Source: Pristionchus mayeri (Eukaryota; Nematoda; Chromadorea; Rhabditida; Neodiplogasteridae). Taken from it: a DNA stretch of 64,000 nt. The position numbers were made by a program, and so were the translations under genes. The notes under the pieces are model-generated. The model was given only the letters and a program-made list of their open reading frames with translations. It searched no databases and had not been told where the DNA came from. Positions 25,801 to 53,800 of the stretch are shown piece by piece. Every line of letters starts with the position of its first letter. The stretch's first letter is position 1. The stretch lies in assembly GCA_036245805.1 (NCBI GenBank), contig BTRK01000001.1:7378001-7442000 (forward strand), given 5' to 3'.

Positions 25801-28800
25801 CGTTCTTAATTTAAAAAAAAAAATTAACAGAAGATCTGAGTGTTTTGTGAGAATATGAAGGGTACTTTGAGTTTGTTCTCATATTGCCATTGCAGAACTT
25901 CTTCTACAGCAAGTACGTCCGCATATCAGAAGGCCATTACAACACGGGGGGACCATACGAAAATGAAAGTTGCGCGCTAAACTGCATGTACCAGCCATGC
26001 TTCGGATTCGAGTGAGTAGAAAGAGGAGAGAGAAAGGTGTGAATGAGGTCGGGTGTGAATCGATGAAGGGTGCACCGATGCGTTGGTAAAATATTTTGAG
26101 AAATGGACACTTTGTGAAAATTTGAACAAAGGGTTTTCTGGCAATTCCTTTGTTCAGATTTTGATAAAGTGTCCATTTCTAAGAAAATTTTGCTATCTCA
26201 TCAGTTCACCCGATGAAGTTACCTTTCTTCAGTATTTTCACAGCAAGTTCCACAATTTTGAGTTCTATTTGTGGATGTCATTATTTAGTTCCCAGAATAA
26301 TGTTGAACAATAATAATTACAGCTATATTGACCACTGCAACACCATCCACTACATGACTGACATCACGTTGAACCCCGAGGGAGGCAGGTACGCTTCCTG
26401 GTGCTTGATTAATCAAATCCGAATTGCCAAAATCATCATTCATATATGTTTACTAATTTGTTAGGCGTAGATGCCTGACGGCCTTATCAAGTGAAGGTTG
26501 AATCATGTCCATGGCACAGTGCGCGATTTATTGTGCTCACACGGTAGATATATGTAGTAGTGCCTTAACGACTATCTAGTTGTTTGGTTTCAGGGGAGGC
26601 TGGCTACGACTCCCGAACTCGAAGCAGGAAGCGGATACGATTCTGGGGATGAGCGCAGTGGACCAGGCTAAAGCAGCCATCGATTACCTACGAAGGCCAT
26701 GCGTTTGTTTTCCTCCGATTGATCATATAGTTAGAATCCTAGATATGTTCCAGTAAAATCTATGTATGATTAGACTTTTTTCTTTTCCGATTCCTCCCAC
26801 GTCCACCACCTCTCTCCCAACTACTATTCCTCCCGTCGCTTCGACCTCCACCCAGAAGCCCACTACTTCTACGACGAAGCCTACCACCACCTCAACTATG
26901 GTTCGCAGAGTTCACTGAATTATAAGTTTGAAAACGACCACGATTCAATCAATACATTCCAAAAATACTATACTAATAAAAACTATAAGCCCTCCACTTC
27001 GACGTCTACTGAGAAGCCCACTACTTCTACGACGAAGCCTTCCACCACCTCAACTATGGTTCGCAGAGTTCACTGAATTAGAAGTTTGAACAAGACCACG
27101 ATTCAATCAATACATTCCAAAAATACCATACTAATAAAAACTTTAAGCCCTCCACTTCGACGTCCACTCAGAAGCCCACTACTACTACGACGACGCCTAC
27201 CACCACCCCAACTATGGTTCGCAGAGTTCACTGAATTAGAAGTTTGAACAAGACCACGATCAATCAATATATTCCAAAAATACCATAACAATAAAAACTT
27301 TAAGCCCTACACTTCGACGTCCACTCAGAAGCCCACTACTACTACGACGAAGCCCTCCACAACGCTAAATACGGTTCGCCTTCATTTCTAATAAACTGTA
27401 AAGATAACAGAAAGAACAAATACGGCTGGTTCCTTGAACAACTCTCTTAAATCACTTAACGAATGAATACTTTTCCGACCTCAACTACGACAACAAGCCT
27501 CCCGCCCTCGACTTCCACTATGCCCACTTCCACAACTACCACATCAGTGGTTGGTATTCGTTCATGGCGGTCGTGAATCAGAAACGGGTTGAAGACCGGG
27601 CTGATCCACCACTTAAAGGGATTTGGCATTATATCATGAATTTATTTCATTTCACTTTAAATGACCAAATATTATGATAAATGTAAATAAAAAATAATAC
27701 AAATTAATATAATAATTAATTTATGCAGTTAAAAGTACGGTATTGAAATACCCAGTACGAGAGTAACGTTGATTCGCTATGGTCCGCTAAACAGCGATAT
27801 GGTGGGATTTGGCAGTTTGCCAAGTTCCTCTTGGACCTTCTGATTCTTTTCCGACGTCTCTTAGCATTTTCTTTGTATTATTGGCTCATTCAGTACTTAT
27901 TTTCTAGTTTGCTTCAAGCTAATCACTATTTTGAACATTCCCGCTTGAAATTCACGACACGAACCCAGTCAATCACGCTAGAATGTTGTTTCGTTGAACC
28001 AGCCTGATGACCTTCGTCTCTTTACCGTGGCGTGTGTTTTATTGTTTGTTAAACTATAATATTGTGCGCATTACAGAGGGTCATACCGTCCCTCACCATG
28101 CCCGAGAAGTTCCAGCACATCCATCGTGTGATGAACACCAACATCGATGGGAACAAGATGATCCCTTTCGCCCCTTCCTCCCAGCAAGGTTTGTCCCGTT
28201 TACTTTGGTTCTCAATTCTTTAGTTTGACTCATCTTTCCTGGGAAAAATTGCCCAACTTTCTCCTTATCGCACTCTCTATTGCTTCATGACTGGCGAAAG
28301 AGCACGTAAAAAGAAGAGTCAGGTTTTTTCGACACACTCTGCGACATTGTTATTTCGTGTACTATATTCATGTGTTTAGTGGGCAGGATTTGTAGGTAGA
28401 AAACATGTCCTGTACTTCATCTTATTCCGTTCAGGGAGTCGACCGGCGATAAGTTTGCCCTCAAGTGGATCGACACTTCCTCCAAGTTCGGCCACGGACG
28501 CTTCCAGACCACTGCCGAAAAGAAGGCCTTCATGGGCATTGACAGGTACGCTTATTTTTTTCGATCAAATCATGTGTCTTGATTTCGTTCCTGGTTTGAA
28601 AAAAAGGAATACTTTGGTACAAATCGTTCATGGCCAACTGTTTCACCCCAACTTCTAATTAGCCACGCGAATTTCATGTTTTAATTTTGAGCCTTTCAAA
28701 GCAACGCCCATAGCTCACTAATAGGTTATTATTTATCTCTACTATACAATAAATATTTATATTGATTTATAAATATTAAATTGTTTATTTTAAAAATATT

Positions 28801-31800
28801 TACAGCTCGAAATACGCTTAACGATTATCGATTTTTCTTAAATGTTTTGATTGGTTGTCCTTATGGATTTCGACAGCTTTAAAATATTCTCCTTATATTT
28901 GCCGTTCGAAAATGGTGCTGTGAGCAATATAATATGAAAAATAAAGCAATTTAGAGATAAATTTAGACGGCGACTTGATTTGAAGAATAATTTTCACATG
29001 GTTTTTTTCCATTTTTTCTCTCGATTATTTTTTTGTTTCGTTCTACAACTTGCTAAAGCCACGCTCACCTCAGGCTACTTGTGCAATATGTTTTGCCTTC
29101 ATACTCATGGCATTTGGGATGATTTTAGATATTGTGTTTTGCTTCGTGGTGAGAACAATGGGCCGTGAAGGGAAATGATAGGCTTAGGCACACTTCGCCG
29201 GATCCATTTTAGTAATTATTTTATCGAGGGCGTATTACCAGCGCCAGCATTTCTGCATTATGTCGTGCCAGAATGAGCGGAGTAGGAATGAGGAGGAAGT
29301 ATGACAGGATAGGATAGGTGATGGTCGAAAATTATTTACTAAAATTACTAACTAACCGTAACGTATGGTACTCTTCAGCTATACCGTCATACCCTATCCT
29401 ATCATACCTCCTCCTCATTCGTACCCCGCTCATTCTAGTACGACATACTGCAGAAGTGCCCCAGTGCCTATATCATTTCAGGAGTTCGAGATCATCGACT
29501 ACTCCTGCTCCAACCTGAAGGATGAGGGTCTCAAGATCATGCCCAGAAGCAGACCAGGTTTGTAATATTGTGAATAGATGAAAAAAGATGTATCGCCTGG
29601 TCCGACATAACGCAAAATTGACAATGCGCGTTCAAGGACGTTTGTTGTACTCGTGTACTTCGAACAATATCGATATGCTCGACATTTATGTTATTGTAGA
29701 GCCGGATACTGCACCCGCTTCAAGGCCTTCGTCGCTATTGAAGATTTATTGGCGGATCCCGGTGAGTGGGTGCTCTTTATCACGTCAGCACCATAACATT
29801 CCTGCTTTGGTACCATTTAGGACGAAATCGGCATGTCGGTACCAGACACGTATCACATAGTAGTACCGGTACCAGGAATGTATCACGTAGTACCACGAGG
29901 TACCAGACCGTCGAATGGGACTAGAAATTCCATATTATCCCGAATGAATACTTTTTTAAAACCCTGATAACAAGTGCCTCGAGCGAGTTAAAAATAAAAA
30001 TACGATTGCAGTATTTTGAAAAAGTTTTTCTTCCTTGTGTCATAAAAATATTTTCTTATGCAGTGGTGGACGCGGAGGAAAGGAAGGAGACAAGGAGTGG
30101 ATGCCCGTGACCAAGGTCGGACGTCTCGCCAAGGACATATAGGTTGGCTAGTGTTGATTTTGTGAAGACAAAAAAAGTATTAGCTGGGTTGGTCGAAAAG
30201 TGTACATTGACAATAACATGCTTCTTTTTATTTACTGACAAATATAACAAATTGCGGGTACAGTAATAACTAGATTTCAACACTGCGCTGGGAAACCTCA
30301 AATTCTTCGTCCTCGCTAGAATCCCCGAAGTCCAATTGCTCTTCTTCATACATGTCGTATCCCGACTCTCGCTTTGCCTTCTCCTTCATATCCCACCAGT
30401 TCACAAGCTCGTCAAACACATCGTCCTCAGGGATTCCCAATCTCGCGATTTCACGCGCCTCGCTTAGCTCCTCCCGCACTTTCAAGCTCTCCGCCAATAT
30501 CTGGAAATAAATATATGTGGAATTTATTTTAGTTGTATTTCGGGAATGCTAATTATTCACCTCGCCCCTCCAAACATGGGTACCCGCTCCTCTCTTTCTT
30601 TTGATTGCTCCCACCAATCGTCCTTTCCTCTTGAGAACGGTGTTCCCTATTTCGGCTCTCTGCCCAAGTAGGTCATCGAGCATAAGGCCGTTGTAATGTA
30701 GCATCGATACTAGCATTTTGAGCTTGTAGTACGGGGGCGAGCTGCAGTTATTACACCCTAACGCTGATCTATTTGGCCATTGTTTTACTAACCATGCTAG
30801 CATCTTCGGGGCATACATCAAGCTCAGTGAGTGATAACACTCATTGATCGATGTATCGATCAATGAGGCAGCAGTCAAAAAGGCCTTTTCGATCTTTGGC
30901 GCAAAGACCAATGTGCGAATCAACTCGAGCTCATCCGAATTTGCCTGAGAAAAATGGTATAATTTCGAATACGGTCTCTCAGATTGACTAACCAGCAGTA
31001 TCTCTCGCTTTTCGCCCTTCTTCAGCTTCTTTAGTCTACCATGCTCGCACTTGGTAACAATTTCGAAGCTATCGCCCTATTATTGAATTATTTTATTGCT
31101 ATCGCACTATTTGTTCACCTTTTTCCATTTATGCTTCCCCTGGATGTGCATGACGAACGACCTAACTACTTCTAGTGCAAGTTTTCGATCTTTCAATAGA
31201 GGGTATTTATTATGGACGCAATATAGATGGTTGAAAAACTTCTGATAAATTGAAGCGAGTGCGGGATTGGCCTTTACGAGCTAAATAGTCATTATTTTTT
31301 TTAAAGAAATATATGTTCTCGTCCCAACCTTCCACCATTCTTTTCTTATCGGCCGCTGGACGTGCCACCAATCATTGAGTACTTCAATATGTGCAGTCTT
31401 GGGCTCCTCTCGCAGTTTCTTATTAACCATTGCATTTTGGTCACCAACTCGCGTGCTGAGCATACAACGTCTTTCCTCTTAGATACAACATTAGATCACG
31501 TTATCTCTATCCCTGCATCGATAAGCTCAACCAGAGCTCTCTTTACTCCCTCGGACTCCATACGAATCGAAATTCCATCTAGAATAGGTATTATTTTTTC
31601 GGAATTCACAATCCCTTATACCTATCCCTGGCATATTCTTATGCATCGCAACTCCTGCCAAAGCCAGTTTCGTATGACAATCAATTACGGTGTCTTTATT
31701 ATTCGTCGAGGTGAAGCCGGGGCAGTCGAACTGACCATCTATTGAAACTTGCAGCCCCTTACCCTAAACGCTCAATTTAATGATCATGCTTTATAGCTTC

Positions 31801-34459
31801 CTATTTACCGCCGATGCGTTCACTGCTACTTCCCGCACTATTTCCTGCATCTCCTCGTGCACTCGCTCAATTGCAACACTCCCTATTTCGCTTACTACTT
31901 TCCGCAATTGTCTTTCCGACGACATATCCATTCCTAACAAATTCGCCCAATCATGCAATCTCTGAAGTTTTTAGTTTAGATTTTTTCATAGTATTTTTCC
32001 TCACCGCAGGTCTCATGCCTGTGATGAAAGATGCGATGGGAATGAAATGATTGGCCGAGTACACTTGGCTTTTCCCTCTCCCAACCTTCTCCTGTCCTTC
32101 CCATTTGATGCTAGCCTTGCATTCCAGGCAATCGTAGTTCACTATCAACGCACTACCCTCTGTCCTCGTCTCGATTAGACTTCGATCGAGCCGAGCCCCG
32201 CACTCTTCACACCGTTGAAACAAGCGCATCAGGCAGCTATGCTCAATAATTCCATAGCGCCTGGCTACATCAATACTCTCGGCCTCTTCCTCATCAATCT
32301 CATGATCCTCCTCCTCATGCATGCTATCTTGGGAATACCGATATTCCGTATCCTAGAATCTATTTATTCTAGCGTATCCCTCATAGCCCACTAACCTCGG
32401 GTTCCACAGTAGTCATAGTAGCTGTGGAAACAGCACTTTTAAATTTCTTGGGCACAACTTCATCAGTATCATTCCAGGAATCGACATCGATTGAATCGTT
32501 GAGGGAGAGGGAGGCGGTCGACCAAACTGGCTGAATTTTTTCTCTCTTCGTTTTTCATTGTTCTCTTTTCGTTTGTATATTATCACATTGTTTTTCCAGT
32601 GATTTGTTTTCATATCAATACTCGTTGTAGTAATAGAATATATAATTTCTGAAAAATATAGCATAAAGACTGACATTGAGAGTGTCCTCATATGAGAGTG
32701 GCGATAGTAGAGCACGAGGGGATCTCGTCTCACTCTGAATGTCTCTAGCTGATGATTGAGATATATTTAGTAACGAATGATAGTAAGGCCAAGTGGGTAA
32801 GGATATTGTTGAACAGGACTCGCCCGCTCATGCCATGATGCTGATTCATGCAACCGAGAGTTGTGTTCTGCCTTGGGATGGAGGTCAGCTGGCCTCGTGG
32901 TTCGAAGGGGTACGGTAGGGAGAGTGAGAGATCTTGCGGGAACAGCTCTATGCTGGAAGCCCACATTGTGAATGAATCTTGTTGTATTTATACTAGATAG
33001 CAGGCAGTAAAGGTAGGGGAACTCACGTCAATGGGAAGGTCGTCGATCTGCTTGTCGAAATGGCGTTCACACCATCGGGGATCTTTTTTCTGTCGATGCT
33101 TGTTGAGCAGATCCGCCGTCTCCTCATCATCTTTGTTCAATCGTAGAACCCATTCCCTCTGTTTAACAGGACGACTAGCGGGGGGAAATCGTTTGGTCCA
33201 TAGCGCAACTTCGTTGCACAAGAAACACCGTTTATATCTCGCTAATTCCATGATGCTGAATCAGATATTGTGTGTTCGATAAATATGGGTAATGGAAAAA
33301 CTTGAAACTACTCAAAAAATCGATGAAAATACGGTAAAAATGGAAATACGGAAAATTGGTGTAGAGCGAGCGTGCGCCTCAACTTTCCGCAGTTTCTGCA
33401 CCCAGTCTAGAACGCGGCTCCGGTCTTGAACTTTGATCTTCATTCTCCACTTAACAATTAATTTTTCTTTTTATTTTTTTTTGCAAAAATGATCGGAAAG
33501 GTGATAGATTTCATATGAGCGTCAATGTTCTAAGAGTGCCAGGTCCCTTTAATTAAACACTCGAAATTTAGTCATACTAATGTGTTAATTTTCGACGACG
33601 ACGACTCTCCCCCCGTCTACCACAACTACCGATTTCGCCACCACAGCATTCATCCCGGATGTGAGATTAAACATTGTCGATTCCCGCTTAGATAACCAAA
33701 GATATTTCAGGGCCTGGTGCCCCTCTACCGATCCTCATACCCGAACGGAATCTCCTTCGTCAGAGCAGAAGGAGAGAGAGAAGCCCAACCACTGACTCCA
33801 ACCACGAGTAAGCTACAATTTAGTCACCTGTATCATTCAAGTGAAATGAATATGTAAGGTTTTCTGGGAAGTATCCTCCCTGCCTATGTCCCTCAAGCTT
33901 CCCTCTGCGGCTGCCTCCGCGCGATCACTCGCACGAAAGATGCTGGTAATTTAATTATCAATTTTATGATTTAAAAAATTCGAAAAATTGAAAATATTAT
34001 TTCAGTAATGAGCATCTGGAAGATTACTCTCTCCGATCTAAAGACATCTCAGGAAATCGCCTTATCATCGCGAGGAATCAACAGGATATTGGGGTGAGTA
34101 GTTAATGAAGCCGAACTTATTAAGCCTATTTCAAACTTTAATAGAATAGTATGACTAATGAAAAATCGCGTAGCGTCGTTCCAGATGATTAGAAATTACA
34201 GCTGACTAACATATTTGAGAGATACAGCTAAAATCTATTCAGCTACGGTTCTCCTGTCATCGGCTGCTGTGGAGCCAACCTGGCGATCTACGAGCATCAC
34301 TCATCGTGGAAAGATACGAAGGCAATCAGTGAGCATATGCAGTTTTCAATTTGATATTTATTACATTCAACTGCAGATTGGGATTACAGCACTACCGAGG
34401 TTGGAGTACAGGGCTGGTCTACTTCTCCCGCCCCCATTATGTTCGTCTGGAACAACTAA
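22822..34459 (+). CDS. Secreted modular protein with Cys modules and Thr-rich linker
   Basis: I do not recognise the family. The phase-consistent model has 19 exons and 550 aa: 22822-22894, 23300-23423, 23782-23874, 25477-25582, 25665-25733, 25896-26011, 26323-26388, 26594-26702, 26790-26900, 26990-27058, 27148-27216, 27305-27373, 27478-27549, 33595-33660, 33711-33807, 33859-33945, 34006-34093, 34243-34328, 34377-34459. Residues 1-24 form a signal peptide ([15 protein letters not shown]). Two related modules follow ([31 protein letters not shown]), each ending in an Ala-rich helix and a Cys; the spacing recalls PAN/apple-like domains (inference). A Thr/Pro linker suggests O-glycosylation. The C-terminal domain ([33 protein letters not shown]) ends at TAA. 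Five exons (2, 9, 13, 14 and perhaps 5) lack a normal AG acceptor, so those borders are uncertain. A 5.9 kb transposon lies in intron 13. AATAAA occurs near 34647. Confidence 0.75.
23485..23580. repeat. Short dispersed repeat with TGACGTCAT
   Basis: The block with TTGAAACATCAAAGGCGGCA and the adjoining palindrome TGACGTCAT recurs at about 44130-44210. It is intronic here. Probably a small MITE; its ends were not resolved. Confidence 0.5.
24066..24277. repeat. Dispersed repeat, copy 2 (inverted)
   Basis: Inverted relative of 17832-18256, sharing AGGGTTGGCCA, the GATTCGCTATCC block and the GCGCGCACTAGTCGCGCC block. It lacks the nested MITE, so it approximates the empty site. Confidence 0.6.
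24288..25179. repeat. Palindromic element interrupted by a MITE
   Basis: The outer arms read CATTTGCACAACAATTCGCC (24288 onward) and its complement ending at 25179. Symmetry continues through GTATGTGCTCCCCTACATTT on both sides to a centre near 24930. The left arm is split by a 401 bp insertion at 24356. It lies in intron 3 of the secreted gene. Confidence 0.75.
24356..24756. mobile_element. hAT-type palindromic MITE
   Basis: Termini TAGTGTTGGAAATTCGCAC and the inverted partner ending AATTTGCAACACTA enclose a long hairpin. The flanks are a perfect 8 bp duplication ATTGTAAC (24348-24355 and 24757-24764). The symmetric arm of the host palindrome shows the uninterrupted sequence. Confidence 0.85.
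25366..25455. repeat. Hairpin MITE, GCAATGGTCTGACTC family
   Basis: A 90 bp perfect-looking stem GCAATGGTCTGACTCTCTTC ... GAATCAGACCATTGC around an ACCGGT loop. Same family as 43415 and 44225. No clean target duplication here. Confidence 0.75.
26834..27373 (+). repeat. Tandem array of a Thr-rich exon plus its intron
   Basis: Four units with a period of about 157-159 bp (exon ends at 26900, 27058, 27216, 27373). Each unit holds a 69 bp exon (longer in the first) coding P-(S/Y)-T-S-T-S-T-(Q/E)-K-P-T-T and the same short intron beginning GTTCGCAGAG. Every added unit keeps frame because the exon is 23 codons. Confidence 0.85.
27550..27616. other. Left flank of the Kolobok-like insertion
   Basis: Start of secreted-gene intron 13, ending in the TTAA target copy at 27613-27616. 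Confidence 0.6.
28077..28188 (+). pseudogene. RPS18 N-terminal exon fragment
   Basis: After an AG acceptor the frame reads [18 protein letters not shown] then [10 protein letters not shown], the start of small-subunit ribosomal protein S18. It then departs from the family (PSSQQ) and ends at GTTTGT. The rest of S18 (the GVGRR region and after) is absent. The fragment cannot be joined in frame to its neighbours, so it is a captured piece and not a gene. Confidence 0.85.
28435..28545 (+). pseudogene. RPL3 C-terminal fragment
   Basis: The exon-like block, flanked by TTCAG and GTACGC, encodes [20 protein letters not shown] followed by AFMG, a signature of the large-subunit ribosomal protein L3 C-terminus. 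The normal lysine-rich end after the Gly is replaced by IDR. Its phase does not fit the S18 piece upstream. Confidence 0.88.
29248..29458. repeat. Hairpin inside the Kolobok-like element
   Basis: Arms starting CATTTCTGCATTATGTCGT and its complement ending at 29458 also share GAATGAGCGG and GATAGGAT blocks. Centre near 29350. It lies between the RPL3 and RPS2 fragments. Confidence 0.7.
29482..29557 (+). pseudogene. RPS2 middle fragment 1
   Basis: The frame [20 protein letters not shown] then PRSRP follows a TTTCAG and precedes GTTTGT. It corresponds to the ribosomal protein S2 segment that normally reads EIIDFFLG...LKDEVLKIMPVQKQ. Several conserved residues are changed, as expected for a decaying copy. 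Confidence 0.82.
29700..29761 (+). pseudogene. RPS2 middle fragment 2
   Basis: Encodes [20 protein letters not shown] between GTAG and GTGAGT. The core TRFKAFVAI is the S2 segment that directly follows fragment 1 in the normal protein. Confidence 0.8.
30064..30142 (+). pseudogene. RPS2 N-terminal fragment, out of order
   Basis: After ATGCAG the frame reads [20 protein letters not shown] then LAKDI and a TAG. This is the Gly/Arg-rich N-terminal part of ribosomal protein S2, which should precede the two RPS2 pieces upstream. Its position downstream shows rearrangement or a separate capture. Confidence 0.85.
30270..33251 (-). CDS. THAP-domain transposase, Kolobok-like
   Basis: Probable cut-and-paste transposase of the surrounding element. 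Eleven phase-consistent exons give 689 aa without a stop: 33027-33251, 32396-32530, 32005-32352, 31809-31961, 31622-31763, 31500-31578, 31329-31455, 31119-31280, 30993-31076, 30561-30944, 30270-30500. Residues about 9-65 form a THAP zinc finger ([22 protein letters not shown]2CH). A CEECG...CLEC knuckle region follows at about 160-190. The catalytic part shows [11 protein letters not shown], then [18 protein letters not shown], then [17 protein letters not shown], then FFNHLY and INECYHSL, which match THAP-linked transposase-like proteins in many animals. The last exon is acidic ([17 protein letters not shown]). AATAAA lies about 40 bp past the stop. The exact DDE residues were not proven. A domesticated host gene is possible, but the transposon ends argue for an element. 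Confidence 0.82.
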
Positions 34460-38796: not shown

Positions 38797-38897
38797 TAGT
38801 GATGCCAAATCGGCGCGCGCTCTCCTCGTCTCACACGCTCTCTCACCGGTCAGACAGATCGAGAGAGCGTGTGAAACGAGGAGATTCGACATCACTA
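38797..38897. mobile_element. hAT-type hairpin MITE (TAGTGATGCC family)
   Basis: Termini TAGTGATGCCAAATCGGCG and the inverted CATCACTA enclose a CTCTCTC/GAGAGAG stem. The flanks are a perfect 8 bp duplication ATGTACAC (38789-38796, 38898-38905). The duplicated locus near 34920 shows a single ATGTACAC without the insert. Confidence 0.9.
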
Positions 38898-43414: not shown

Positions 43415-43506
43415 GGGCAATCGTCTGACTCTCTTCAGTTTGCACGCTCTCTCATATCTCTAACCGGCGAGAGAGCGTGCAAACTGAAAAGAGTCAGACC
43501 ATTGCT
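43415..43506. mobile_element. Hairpin MITE, 9 bp target duplication
   Basis: A 92 bp stem GGGCAATCGTCTGACTCTC ... GAGTCAGACCATTGCT with loop ACCGGC. Flanked by a perfect 9 bp repeat CCTGCATTG (43406-43414, 43507-43515). A 9 bp target points to a Mutator-like source. Confidence 0.85.
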
Positions 43507-50800: not shown

Positions 50801-53800
50801 CTAGATTAGGCGATTGTTTATACCCATTTTCATGTGAATATTCGGTGAGGGTCAGTGGTTAAGGAACAAATTCATAATTTTTGAGTAAAAATAGAGCATT
50901 GCCAGATGTGCACTAAACCAACATGGTAGCATATGTAGACCAAGTTGTGCACATTTATCGTTGAATTGGGATCATTTGACTTGAAATGTTCGTGTTCAGA
51001 ACATGCGAATGTTGAGTCAGACTACATCTGAACAGCCGCTCCACTCTGACCCTCGCCGAGTATTCACATGCAAAATGGGTATAAAGAATCGCCTAGTCTA
51101 GCAATTAAGCACAGTAGTTCTCAAACAGTTATTGCATAAAGTGACAAGAAATCAGATTTTTCGCTGAAACCGATTGGGTGGTTTCATGTGCATGAAAATT
51201 GGTCAACAAAATTTTTCGATTTTTGCAATTTTCAATCCGTTCGCTATAAAACTTGGCATGTTGTTGCTCCATCATGACATTATTACACCTGTAAAATTTT
51301 GACCCTTTAGCTCAATTTGTTCCGAAGATATAGCCAAAAAAACAAAATTTGTGAGGTCTCGAAAAATCGATCTACCGACTCTCATCGAGAAACACCAAAC
51401 ACGCTGGATAGTGGATTCTTATCATCGGGGGAAGTACTATCACCGAAATGAATTTGACTTCATAGCGCAGTTCGGCTGAGGTTTAAAAAATCAAATCGAA
51501 AGTGTTCCGGGAAAATAAATTTTGTAACCCGCGATATATAGGTTTCAGCACTTCATTCATATGTCGATAATATTCTGGGGTGTATCTCTCGAATGCTCCA
51601 AACCGTAAGTCTTTATCTCAATTTTGAAAGAAGTTATGATCATTTGAAGTTTGGTGCTGAACTTTTGTCCGCAACTGTATCATATAACACGGTCATGAAG
51701 CGAGAAAGTACTGATAGTTGCTTTCTTTACGGGGCAATCCCTACTTGCAACCTTGTTCAGATCCGCAGCCGAGACATCCAACAGCACGACGATATCCGCA
51801 GCGACGTCGGCCAATCGGGGAGACGAACGAAGGTGGGCGTCGTGAGCTGAGATGAGAGAGAGAGGTGATATTTGATCTCTAAGATCTGAATTCCCATGTT
51901 CCCGGTGATGGATAGACGTTTGCCTAACTTGATTTATTGTACCTATAAATCAACTTGATTTTTGCAAGAAACTTGTTTTATTGTTTTAAGTTTTAATACA
52001 ATGATCAACAATAATCAACGAACGAGACCTTAGTATGTCTTGAGATAACGTTGAAGCATATTCGAAAAACAAACAAAAATATTTCGAAAAATCCTAACCC
52101 TTTTCCAGATCTGAAATTAGTCGATGAAATTCGCCTCTGCCCCAGTCGAGTGACGCGTCGAAGCGGTAACCTGAAACTCGTGATCTTCGATCTTTAATCT
52201 CTCTCTACTACATATTATTCATACTCGATTAACATTTGTCAGCTTATTATACGGACTGAGCGAACTATCAGTGATGCGTAGTAAATTAGCCGAAGCATGG
52301 AGAGGATTGATCTTTGATCTCCCCCTTTTCACTCTCACCACTGCTCTGCACTGCGTCCGGCTGAATGTGGACTGTGAAGGGGCGGGCACCGAGGGAAGAA
52401 AGGGACTTGCGCAGAGCCTCCGGACTGCAATTATTAAGTTTATTACTAGTAATTAGTGATGCCAAAACGGCGCGCGCTCTCCTCGTTTCACACGCTCTCT
52501 CACTCTGTCTGACCGGCGAGAGAGCGTGTGAAACGAGGAGAGCGCGCGCCGTTTTGGCATCACTACTAGTAATAATGAACATAATTCATTCTTCTTCAGC
52601 GACATATTTTTTCTCGTATTATCGGTCGAAACTTTCGCATCACATTGAAGACAAATACACAGTGTGTCAGAGAGATCGAGTTCCTTTGTTCGTCGCGGCG
52701 CTCGAGCAATCTCATTTCGAGCCACCTGCTGGAGTGGAGCGGCGAGACGAGGGAAAATATGCTTTATAATAATGGTGAAACACATAGCATATCTTTGTAG
52801 AACTTCTCAAATATGTAAATTTAAGAACATAAATCTATTATGCTATGAGTAAGGATGCACGTCTACCGTTTTCAACCGGTTAGAATATTTTTTTTTTATT
52901 TTTTGACTGTATTTTGCGAAATCCTATGAATTTACCCACTAAAATTCGAACTCCTCAGAGGGGAATAATGGGAGACCCTACTTCTGGGGCATTTTCTGAA
53001 TCCTCATGAGTAGTTCTACAATTGCAACCGACGGATTTTTGATATTTTGTTTAGTATTCGAGTAATCATGAAAAATGTACTTTTTGTTGCACGTTTATAG
53101 CCGTTTTTTCGAATACTATATAAAATATTAAAAATTCGTCGGTTGCAATTGTAGAACTTTAAAAATTCGTCGGTTGCAATTGCAATTGTACTCATGAGGA
53201 TTCAGAAAATGCCCCAGAAGTGGGCTCTCCCATTATTCCCCTCTGAGGAGTTCGAATTTTAGTGGGTAATTTCCTAGGATTTCGCAAAATGCAATCAAAA
53301 AAATTTGAAAAATATTCTAGCCGGTTGAGAAAAGGTAGACGTGCATTCTTACTCATAGCATAAGAGATTTATGTTTTTAGATTTACATATTTGCGAAGTT
53401 CTACAAAGATATGCTATGTATTTCACCATTATTATAAAGCCTATTTCCCTCGTCTCGCCGCTCCACTCCAGCAGGTGGCTCGAAATGAGATTGCTCGAGC
53501 GCCGCGACGAACAAAGGAACTCGATCTCTCTGACACGCTGTGAAATACGCATCTAGGTAGGAATCAGATATTCTTAGAACTTGTTGGTCAAAGATTAAAG
53601 ATCACTCACTCCTGCCCTATGGCAACTATGACGGCATAGGCGGGTCGTGCAGGGTGCTCCCGTCTCAGTTCAGCAACTGTGGAGAGAATCCTGAAGAGGT
53701 CACGCATCTCTTTCTTTTCACTCTCTCTATTTCCTTTGCTCTCTCCGATTTCCTATTGAAATATTAATATTCAATGTTATTCAGTGTACCCAGGTCATTC

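What the first reader, a model, noticed from the sequence alone, without database searches (positions are those of the whole stretch)
27617..33548. A complete Kolobok-like transposon carrying pieces of several ribosomal protein genes
Seen: TTAA flanks, AGGG inverted ends, an open 11-exon THAP transposase gene on one strand, and recognisable exon fragments of RPS18, RPL3 and RPS2 on the other, all inside one element. Known: gene capture is well described for Pack-MULEs, Helitrons and CACTA elements; I know of no established case for Kolobok with ribosomal genes. Inference: this element family may sample highly transcribed host loci.
Basis: partly seen in the sequence, partly recalled or inferred. 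Interest (0 to 1): 0.88.

Follow-up and report, generated by a model that had tools for sequence, protein, structure and literature searches.

The report
Transposon carrying ribosomal protein gene pieces
This is a recently active, apparently self-mobilising DNA transposon of a Pristionchus nematode that has carried pieces of three host ribosomal protein genes while it multiplied, and related transposon families in the same genome carry pieces of two of the same genes, so the cargo is old and was passed on or exchanged.

Summary
Window 27617-33548 is a complete TTAA-flanked element: 18 copies read end to end (the window's own included) all begin AGGGATTT, end AGGTCCCT and sit between TTAAs, 0.13-0.71% from their majority sequence; 56 exact window-type left ends exist. 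The 11-exon transposase is open in 12 of 18 copies and was under purifying selection (dN 0.031, dS 0.246 against a 90.6% relative). Contig lengths identify Pristionchus mayeri. Kolobok is supported (TTAA duplication, AG...CT ends, D..D..DWWH..E), though Pfam says 'Mutator'. RPS18, RPL3 and RPS2 exon pieces lie inside all 18; some internally deleted copies have lost pieces. Unexpected: two Kolobok families with transposases only 62% and 70% identical also carry RPS18 and RPS2 pieces; one has RPS2 in the same scrambled order and RPS18 pieces of exons 1-3 at the host's intron positions. So RPS18 and RPS2 were captured as genomic DNA before the families split, or passed between them; the RPL3 piece is a later patch inside RPS18. 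In the window family the cargo now evolves like its surroundings and makes no RP-frame protein.

The parts
27613..27616 (.). Target-site duplication TTAA, left
   Evidence: TTAA on both sides in 18 of 18 copies read end to end
27617..33548 (.). Complete Kolobok-type transposon, 5932 bp
   Evidence: Same ends in 18 of 18 copies; 13 other full-length copies at 99-100% (25 of 343 candidates scored); 56 exact window-type left ends genome-wide, reversed-pattern control 0
27617..27628 (+). Left terminal inverted repeat AGGGATTTGGCA
   Evidence: arms 27613-27628 / 33537-33552, 88% complementary
28077..28188 (+). RPS18 exon 1 fragment (host start codon changed; donor GT kept)
   Evidence: 90.7% nt to host RPS18 (L050) over 107 nt, the match ending about 5 nt past the donor; PDB E 7e-11
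28435..28545 (+). Chimeric exon: start of RPS18 exon 2 fused to an RPL3 C-terminal segment
   Evidence: PDB RPL3 E 8.7e-12, residues 358-387 of chain 9bh5_CB; 40 of 40 scored genome copies at 99-100%, 57 candidates; junctions
28677..28995 (.). Non-coding block shared with two diverged Kolobok families; origin unknown
   Evidence: 77% identity to L048 (229 of 298) and L046 (235 of 307); no Rfam match up to E 5 in the block
29247..29459 (.). Nested palindromic insertion (MITE-like, 70-nt arms)
   Evidence: absent at the same place in L049 and L048
29482..29557 (+). RPS2 exon fragment a (EFEIIDY...)
   Evidence: 67 of 76 nt identical in L048
29700..29761 (+). RPS2 exon fragment b ([15 protein letters not shown])
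   Evidence: 42 of 62 aligned nt identical in L048
30064..30137 (+). RPS2 exon fragment c ([25 protein letters not shown]), an earlier part of RPS2 placed last
   Evidence: shared with L046 (67 of 74 nt) and L048 (62 of 74)
30270..33251 (-). Transposase gene, 11 exons: 33251-33027, 32530-32396, 32352-32005, 31961-31809, 31763-31622, 31578-31500, 31455-31329, 31280-31119, 31076-30993, 30944-30561, 30500-30270; 689 aa
   Evidence: Pfam PF20700 'Mutator' E 3.4e-14; open in 12 of 18 copies
33537..33548 (-). Right terminal inverted repeat (AGGGACCTGGCA on the minus strand)
   Evidence: 222 exact TTAAAGGGACCTGG termini in the genome, reversed-pattern control 5
33549..33552 (.). Target-site duplication TTAA, right

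Best explanation
An autonomous Kolobok-superfamily cut-and-paste transposon of Pristionchus mayeri with host gene cargo on the strand opposite to its transposase. Shown: the ends, the target duplications, an open transposase gene that was under purifying selection, recent multiplication, and RP pieces inside the ends of the window family and of two diverged families. Inferred: (1) an ancestral element took up genomic DNA of RPS18 (with introns) and of RPS2 (rearranged), probably by copying from these loci while a transposition break was being repaired; (2) families inherited this block or exchanged it by recombination; (3) in the window branch an RPL3 segment was pasted into RPS18 exon 2-3 at short shared motifs; (4) the cargo is now a passenger in the window family and is copied because it lies between intact ends. 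That the transposase is active today was not tested.
For: Ends and TSDs 18 of 18. Transposase open in 12 of 18 copies, 11 of them with all 20 canonical splice sites; dN/dS about 0.13 to L049. All five RP pieces are covered by the alignments of the 18 end-to-end copies and the cargo DNA is present in 5 of 5 further window-family copies probed. RPS18 and RPS2 pieces in L045/L048 and L046 on the same strand and in corresponding places. 14 of 15 TE-borne RPS18 exon-2 hits on the stretch where termini were listed lie inside Kolobok termini, chance under 1% per hit; the 15th lies beyond the last listed terminus. RPS18 introns 1 and 2 sit at the host's positions in L048 and L046, so genomic DNA rather than mRNA was copied. 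Cargo exons and non-exons diverge alike between window and L049: 91.6% and 90.4% identical, p 0.52.
Against: The cargo introns gave no blastn match to the host RPS18 introns, so copying of introns rests on their positions. The host RPS2 gene was not confirmed and host RPL3 was located but not read, so junctions are described from the elements and from protein matches. Cargo non-exon DNA differs less between window and L048 (39%) than transposase third positions (59%) and short introns (55%), which favours transfer of a module, or constraint, over simple inheritance; for L046 it does not (cargo non-exon 40.5%, short introns 38.6%, third positions 53%). No tree with named Kolobok references was made.
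Confidence: 0.83

Rival explanations
1. Repeated independent capture: each Kolobok family took RPS18 and RPS2 pieces from the host on its own, because these loci are hot spots.
For: Exon 1 of each family is about equally far from the host (87.7-91.2% identical), and the window and L048 are about twice as far from each other (92 of 110 identical), as a star from the host would give. RPL3 was added separately, and other RPL3 fragments are dispersed in the genome.
Against: The scrambled RPS2 order and the non-coding block 28677-28995 are shared between window and L048; L048 and L046 share the same break at the end of RPS18 exon 3.
Confidence: 0.12
2. Module transfer, a variant of step 2 of the best explanation: the cargo block was captured once and later passed between Kolobok families by recombination or template switching.
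For: Window-L048: cargo non-exon DNA differs at 39% where transposase third positions differ at 59% and short introns at 55%. The window's left end has no match to those of L048 and L046, which resemble each other, while the right 134 bp are 86-88% alike in all: a mosaic pattern.
Against: Window-L046: cargo non-exon 40.5% against short introns 38.6%. The cargo lies at the corresponding place and strand in all three families; constraint on part of the block could give the same numbers.
Confidence: 0.35
3. The cargo was kept by selection: the RP exons form a spliced transcript that serves the element, as a small accessory protein or by resembling germline-expressed host genes and so escaping small-RNA silencing.
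For: RPS18 exon 1 plus RPS2 a and c: 221 of 260 identical between window and L048 against 229 of 298 in the conserved block (p 0.018); exon 1 plus RPS2 c 158 of 185 against 235 of 307 for L046 (p 0.020); transposase third positions are only 41% and 47% identical. Canonical splice sites lie on both sides of the first four fragments and at the start of the fifth. A P. mayeri gene model joins RPS18 pieces to an RPS2 piece read in a shifted frame (P0014). Other Kolobok lineages carry accessory genes, some on the complementary strand (PMC9587614, passages).
Against: Exons evolve like non-exons since the window-L049 split (p 0.52). RP frames do not join in the window element (best 121 aa, shifted); RPS18 exon 1 is frame-shifted in L048. 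The exon sets in the favourable tests were chosen after seeing the alignment; with all five exons it is 316 of 431 for L048 and 243 of 374 for L046. No expression data were seen.
Confidence: 0.15
4. Misassembly, or a host chimeric gene next to a transposon.
For: None found.
Against: 18 of 18 end-to-end copies on six chromosomes, all with different left flanks.
Confidence: 0.01

Closest known systems
Kolobok superfamily DNA transposons (Kojima and Bao 2022, PMC9587614; passages read)
   Same: TTAA target duplication, 5'-RR and YY-3' ends, C/DxxH motif between the second D and E; some lineages carry a further gene on the complementary strand
   Different: Second genes named in the passages are nucleases, a helicase or KolX; here it is pieces of host ribosomal protein genes
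Animal Pack-TIRs (Tan et al. 2021, PMC8277862; passages and section 7 read)
   Same: Host gene fragments between transposon ends, in some cases spread as multicopy elements with distinct TSDs
   Different: There 370 cases in 100 animals, 323 in hAT or TcMariner, four multicopy in the reference genomes (and Ssk-FB4s in Drosophila populations); the main text has no 'Kolobok'. Here a Kolobok with an open transposase, dozens of copies, three parental genes and cargo shared between families
Pack-MULEs of plants (recalled)
   Same: Capture of several gene fragments into one mobile element
   Different: Mutator superfamily with 9-11 bp duplications and usually no transposase (recalled)
Kolobok-like transposases of P. 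pacificus and P. entomophagus
   Same: Transposase 50-60% identical
   Different: Their genomic context could not be read, so their cargo is unknown

Membership tests
Kolobok superfamily | 4-bp TTAA target-site duplication | tested here: met
   18 of 18 copies
Kolobok superfamily | Termini 5'-RR ... YY-3' (distinguishes from piggyBac) | tested here: met
   AG...CT in 18 of 18 copies; criterion from PMC9587614
[quoted passage not shown]
   SIDGQ, GDQN, DWWH, INE in the protein; first D and the D and H of DWWH invariant, second D nearly invariant in an alignment of 11 relatives. The E is placed by motif only; the predicted fold was unusable
Kolobok superfamily | Zinc finger between C/DxxH and E | tested here: inconclusive
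   C and H residues present (for example KCEHG) but not aligned to named Kolobok references
Kolobok superfamily | Placement in a Kolobok tree | not tested
   No named Kolobok reference proteins at hand; Pfam names the domain PF20700 'Mutator'
Mutator/MULE | 9-11 bp target duplication (recalled) | tested here: not met
   4-bp TTAA in 18 of 18
THAP-domain transposase | Pfam THAP domain | tested here: inconclusive
   No THAP match at E up to 1; C-x2-C...C-x2-H-F pattern by eye (THAP signature recalled)
Pack-TIR | Host gene fragment inside TIRs and TSDs | tested here: met
Pack-TIR | Non-autonomous, transposase gene lost (usual, recalled) | tested here: not met
   Transposase open in 12 of 18 copies

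The most novel reading that the evidence does not exclude
Several Kolobok families have kept RPS18/RPS2 exons through deep divergence because nucleotide likeness to strongly germline-expressed ribosomal genes helps the element, for example by marking its transcripts as self against small-RNA silencing; the RPL3 patch would then be a replacement of a decayed self tag.
Probability: 0.12. Interest if true: 0.92.

Novelty: new variant of a known kind. Interest (0 to 1): 0.72.

Why it matters
The animal cases of gene capture by TIR transposons reported in PMC8277862 (section 7) are almost all single-copy. This is a multicopy, apparently still competent element whose cargo is found in several transposon families, so how capture, loss and replacement of host exons proceed in an animal can be followed step by step. 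It also explains many RPS18- and RPS2-like fragments, and at least one gene model, in this genome, and makes the question 'does captured host sequence protect a transposon' testable in a nematode that can be kept in the laboratory (recalled).

Tried and rejected
Structure prediction of the transposase (alignment of 11 relatives, first row P0001): mean pLDDT 42, discarded. Joining the RP exons into one reading frame: 16 exon combinations, all starting at the exon-1 ATG, none keeps an RP frame beyond the first exon. Rfam: no match up to E 5 in the conserved block; the nested palindrome resembles MIR8643 below the curated score (52 of 135 bits). Selection from the 18 young copies: RP exons 12 of 409 variable sites, other plus-strand DNA 94 of 2244, not tested further. 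Dispersed RPL3 fragments as cargo of the same family: only two of 16 places lie where termini were listed; they are 313 and 688 kb from the nearest listed terminus. Literature, ten searches: no paper found for 'Pristionchus' with 'Kolobok', Kolobok + ribosomal protein + captured + TTAA, 'Pristionchus mayeri' + genome assembly + transposable or the five terms; some searches listed papers, of which I opened only PMC8277862 and PMC9587614; no other title in those listings names a Kolobok gene capture. The host RPS2 search by family PF00333 did not complete. The supplementary tables of PMC8277862, which may list further superfamilies, were not available.

Full report
Setting. The window is G000:C1:7378001-7442000 of a 290.8 Mb assembly. 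Proteins annotated for Pristionchus mayeri lie on contigs of exactly the lengths of G000's C2, C4, C5 and C6, so the organism is P. mayeri; this rests on matching lengths.

The element. TTAA (27613-27616), AGGGATTTGGCA...TGCCAGGTCCCT, TTAA (33549-33552). A search of the own genome with 27500-33660 returned 13 other full-length copies at 99-100%, breaking off at these TTAAs give or take a few bases (25 of 343 candidates scored, so a lower bound). Of the 25 elements behind those hits I extracted the 18 with both ends in one locus, the window's own included: 18 of 18 carry AGGGATTT...AGGTCCCT between TTAAs; the left flanks all differ, and a few right flanks are alike (L012 with L019; L022 with L024 and nearly L013). 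They are 0.13-0.71% from their majority sequence. The other seven are interrupted by deletions or truncated; one of them, L033, shows a slightly changed right end. 56 exact window-type left ends exist (reversed-pattern control 0) and 222 exact TTAAAGGGACCTGG termini (control 5).

The transposase. Eleven exons on the minus strand, 20 of 20 GT/AG sites, 689 aa. Open in 12 of 18 copies, 11 of which have all 20 canonical sites; the other six have a premature stop, a frame change or a deletion. Against the 90.6% relative L049: dN 0.031, dS 0.246 over 686 codons, so the gene has been under purifying selection. Pfam gives PF20700 'Mutator' only. By the criteria in PMC9587614 (passages read: TTAA duplication, RR/YY ends, C/DxxH motif) it is a Kolobok; no tree with named Kolobok references was made.

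The cargo. On the plus strand: RPS18 exon 1 (28077-28188), a chimeric exon (28435-28545) starting with RPS18 exon 2 and continuing with RPL3, and three RPS2 exons (29482-29557, 29700-29761, 30064-30137) with the earliest part of RPS2 last. All five pieces are covered in the 18 end-to-end copies; among interrupted copies L028 lacks the RPL3 exon and L033/L037 the third RPS2 piece. Host RPS18 lies at about C4:29044.5-29045.4 kb; the element's exon 1 is 90.7% identical to it and the match stops about 5 nt past the donor. Host RPL3 lies at C1:21370200-21372204. A probable host RPS2 exon is C4:28631473-28631593, 92% to an element exon; it is not confirmed, since PF00333 did not complete. If right, RPS18 and RPS2 lie 0.41 Mb apart on one chromosome.

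The cargo is old. Five further window-family copies were probed over the cargo side: its DNA is present in 5 of 5 at 98-99%, and peptide matches were found for RPS18, RPL3, RPS2 a and c in 5 of 5 and for RPS2 b in 4 of 5. Two diverged families carry it too: L045/L048 (C1:16595180-16601545; transposase 62% aa identical) and L046/L047 (C5:11188.7-11195.1 kb; 70%). L048 holds RPS18 exon 1, an internally deleted exon 2 and part of exon 3, then the three RPS2 pieces in the window's order; L046 holds RPS18 pieces and RPS2 piece c twice, without a and b. Neither shows the RPL3 piece at a convincing score. Both RPS18 introns sit at the host's positions in L048 and L046 (L046 has GC in place of GT at the second donor), so genomic DNA was copied. 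PF00416 finds 31 matches besides the host locus and its neighbour. Of the 15 on the stretch where termini were listed, 14 lie inside Kolobok termini, 12 of them 1.09-1.22 kb from one end; the remaining one lies just beyond the last listed terminus. RPS2 piece c: 40 of 137 candidates scored, 13 at 99-100% to L046, one at 93%, the probable host exon at 92% and 25 at 87-88%, among them the L048 element.

The RPL3 patch. In the alignment of the four families it replaces the stretch between RPS18 exon 2 and exon 3. At its left edge the host RPS18 has TCGAGAAGATCACC where L049 has GGCGAGAAGTTTACC; at its right edge RPS18 exon 3 has CTCAAGAAG and the patch GAAAAGAAG. This fits template switching at short shared motifs, an inference, since host RPL3 DNA could not be read.

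Constraint or passenger. Window against L049: RP exons 393 of 429 identical, other cargo 1641 of 1815, p 0.52: no sign of constraint in this branch. Window against L048: RPS18 exon 1 with RPS2 a and c 221 of 260, the conserved block 229 of 298, p 0.018, while transposase third positions differ at 59%, its short introns at 55% and cargo non-exons at 39%. Window against L046: exon 1 with RPS2 c 158 of 185, block 235 of 307, p 0.020; third positions differ at 53%, short introns at 39%, cargo non-exons at 41%. These exon sets were chosen after seeing the alignment; with all five exons the figures are 316 of 431 and 243 of 374. So parts of the cargo were either constrained earlier, or moved between families after their transposases had diverged, or both; the L046 numbers do not favour transfer. 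RP frames do not join in the window element, so a protein of ribosomal type is unlikely there today.

Against the literature. Tan et al. 2021 (PMC8277862, passages and section 7) report 370 animal Pack-TIRs, 323 of them hAT or TcMariner, and four multicopy in reference genomes; 'Kolobok' does not occur in the main text. My ten searches of the library found no report of this case; most subscription papers are not in that library and Repbase was not searched. I therefore call it a new variant of a known kind: gene capture by a TIR transposon, but in an apparently autonomous, multicopy Kolobok with cargo shared across families.

Noticed in passing
G000 C1:571703, C1:1572415, C6:28121596, C6:22376736, C3:21660955, C4:22651800 and C5:2013472, C5:22845132, C6:17712428 among others: 28 RPL3 exon matches at 16 places outside the host gene, several nearly alike. 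Only two of the places (both C1) could be compared with listed Kolobok termini and neither is near one; perhaps other elements carry RPL3.
   Followed up: partly
L051:1415-1585 (G000 C4:29052.8 kb): A second copy of the last RPS18 exon, 57 of 57 aa identical to the Pristionchus protein P0012, about 7.5 kb downstream of the host gene.
   Followed up: no
window 29247-29459; also L050:1845-1901: Palindromic MITE-like insertion with 70-nt arms, weak Rfam match MIR8643 (52 bits, cut-off 135); pieces of it also lie just downstream of host RPS18.
   Followed up: partly
window 28677-28995: Non-coding block about 77% conserved between diverged Kolobok families, origin and role unknown.
   Followed up: partly
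window 27804-27814: Internal second copy of the terminal motif GGGATTTGGCA, perhaps a further transposase binding site.
   Followed up: no
window 38823-38884, 43430-43490, 52478-52541: Four Rfam mir-8364 matches at three places, one of them on both strands, so probably a repeat family rather than a single microRNA gene.
   Followed up: no
window 26839-27354 and 33585-33800: 158-bp tandem repeat with threonine-rich reading frames on the left and similar coding-like sequence on the right: the element may sit in an intron of a threonine-rich gene.
   Followed up: no
L013, L022, L024 right flanks; L012 and L019 right flanks; L014 right flank: Three copies have nearly the same right flank (perhaps insertions into another repeat), two share a right flank with different left flanks, and one abuts a further TTAAAGGGATG sequence.
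   Followed up: no
L049 (G000 C1:26545300-26553000): A 5.57-kb sister subfamily, about 90.6% identical, without the nested palindrome; at least three further pairs of termini about 5.5 kb apart suggest more copies (read by eye).
   Followed up: partly
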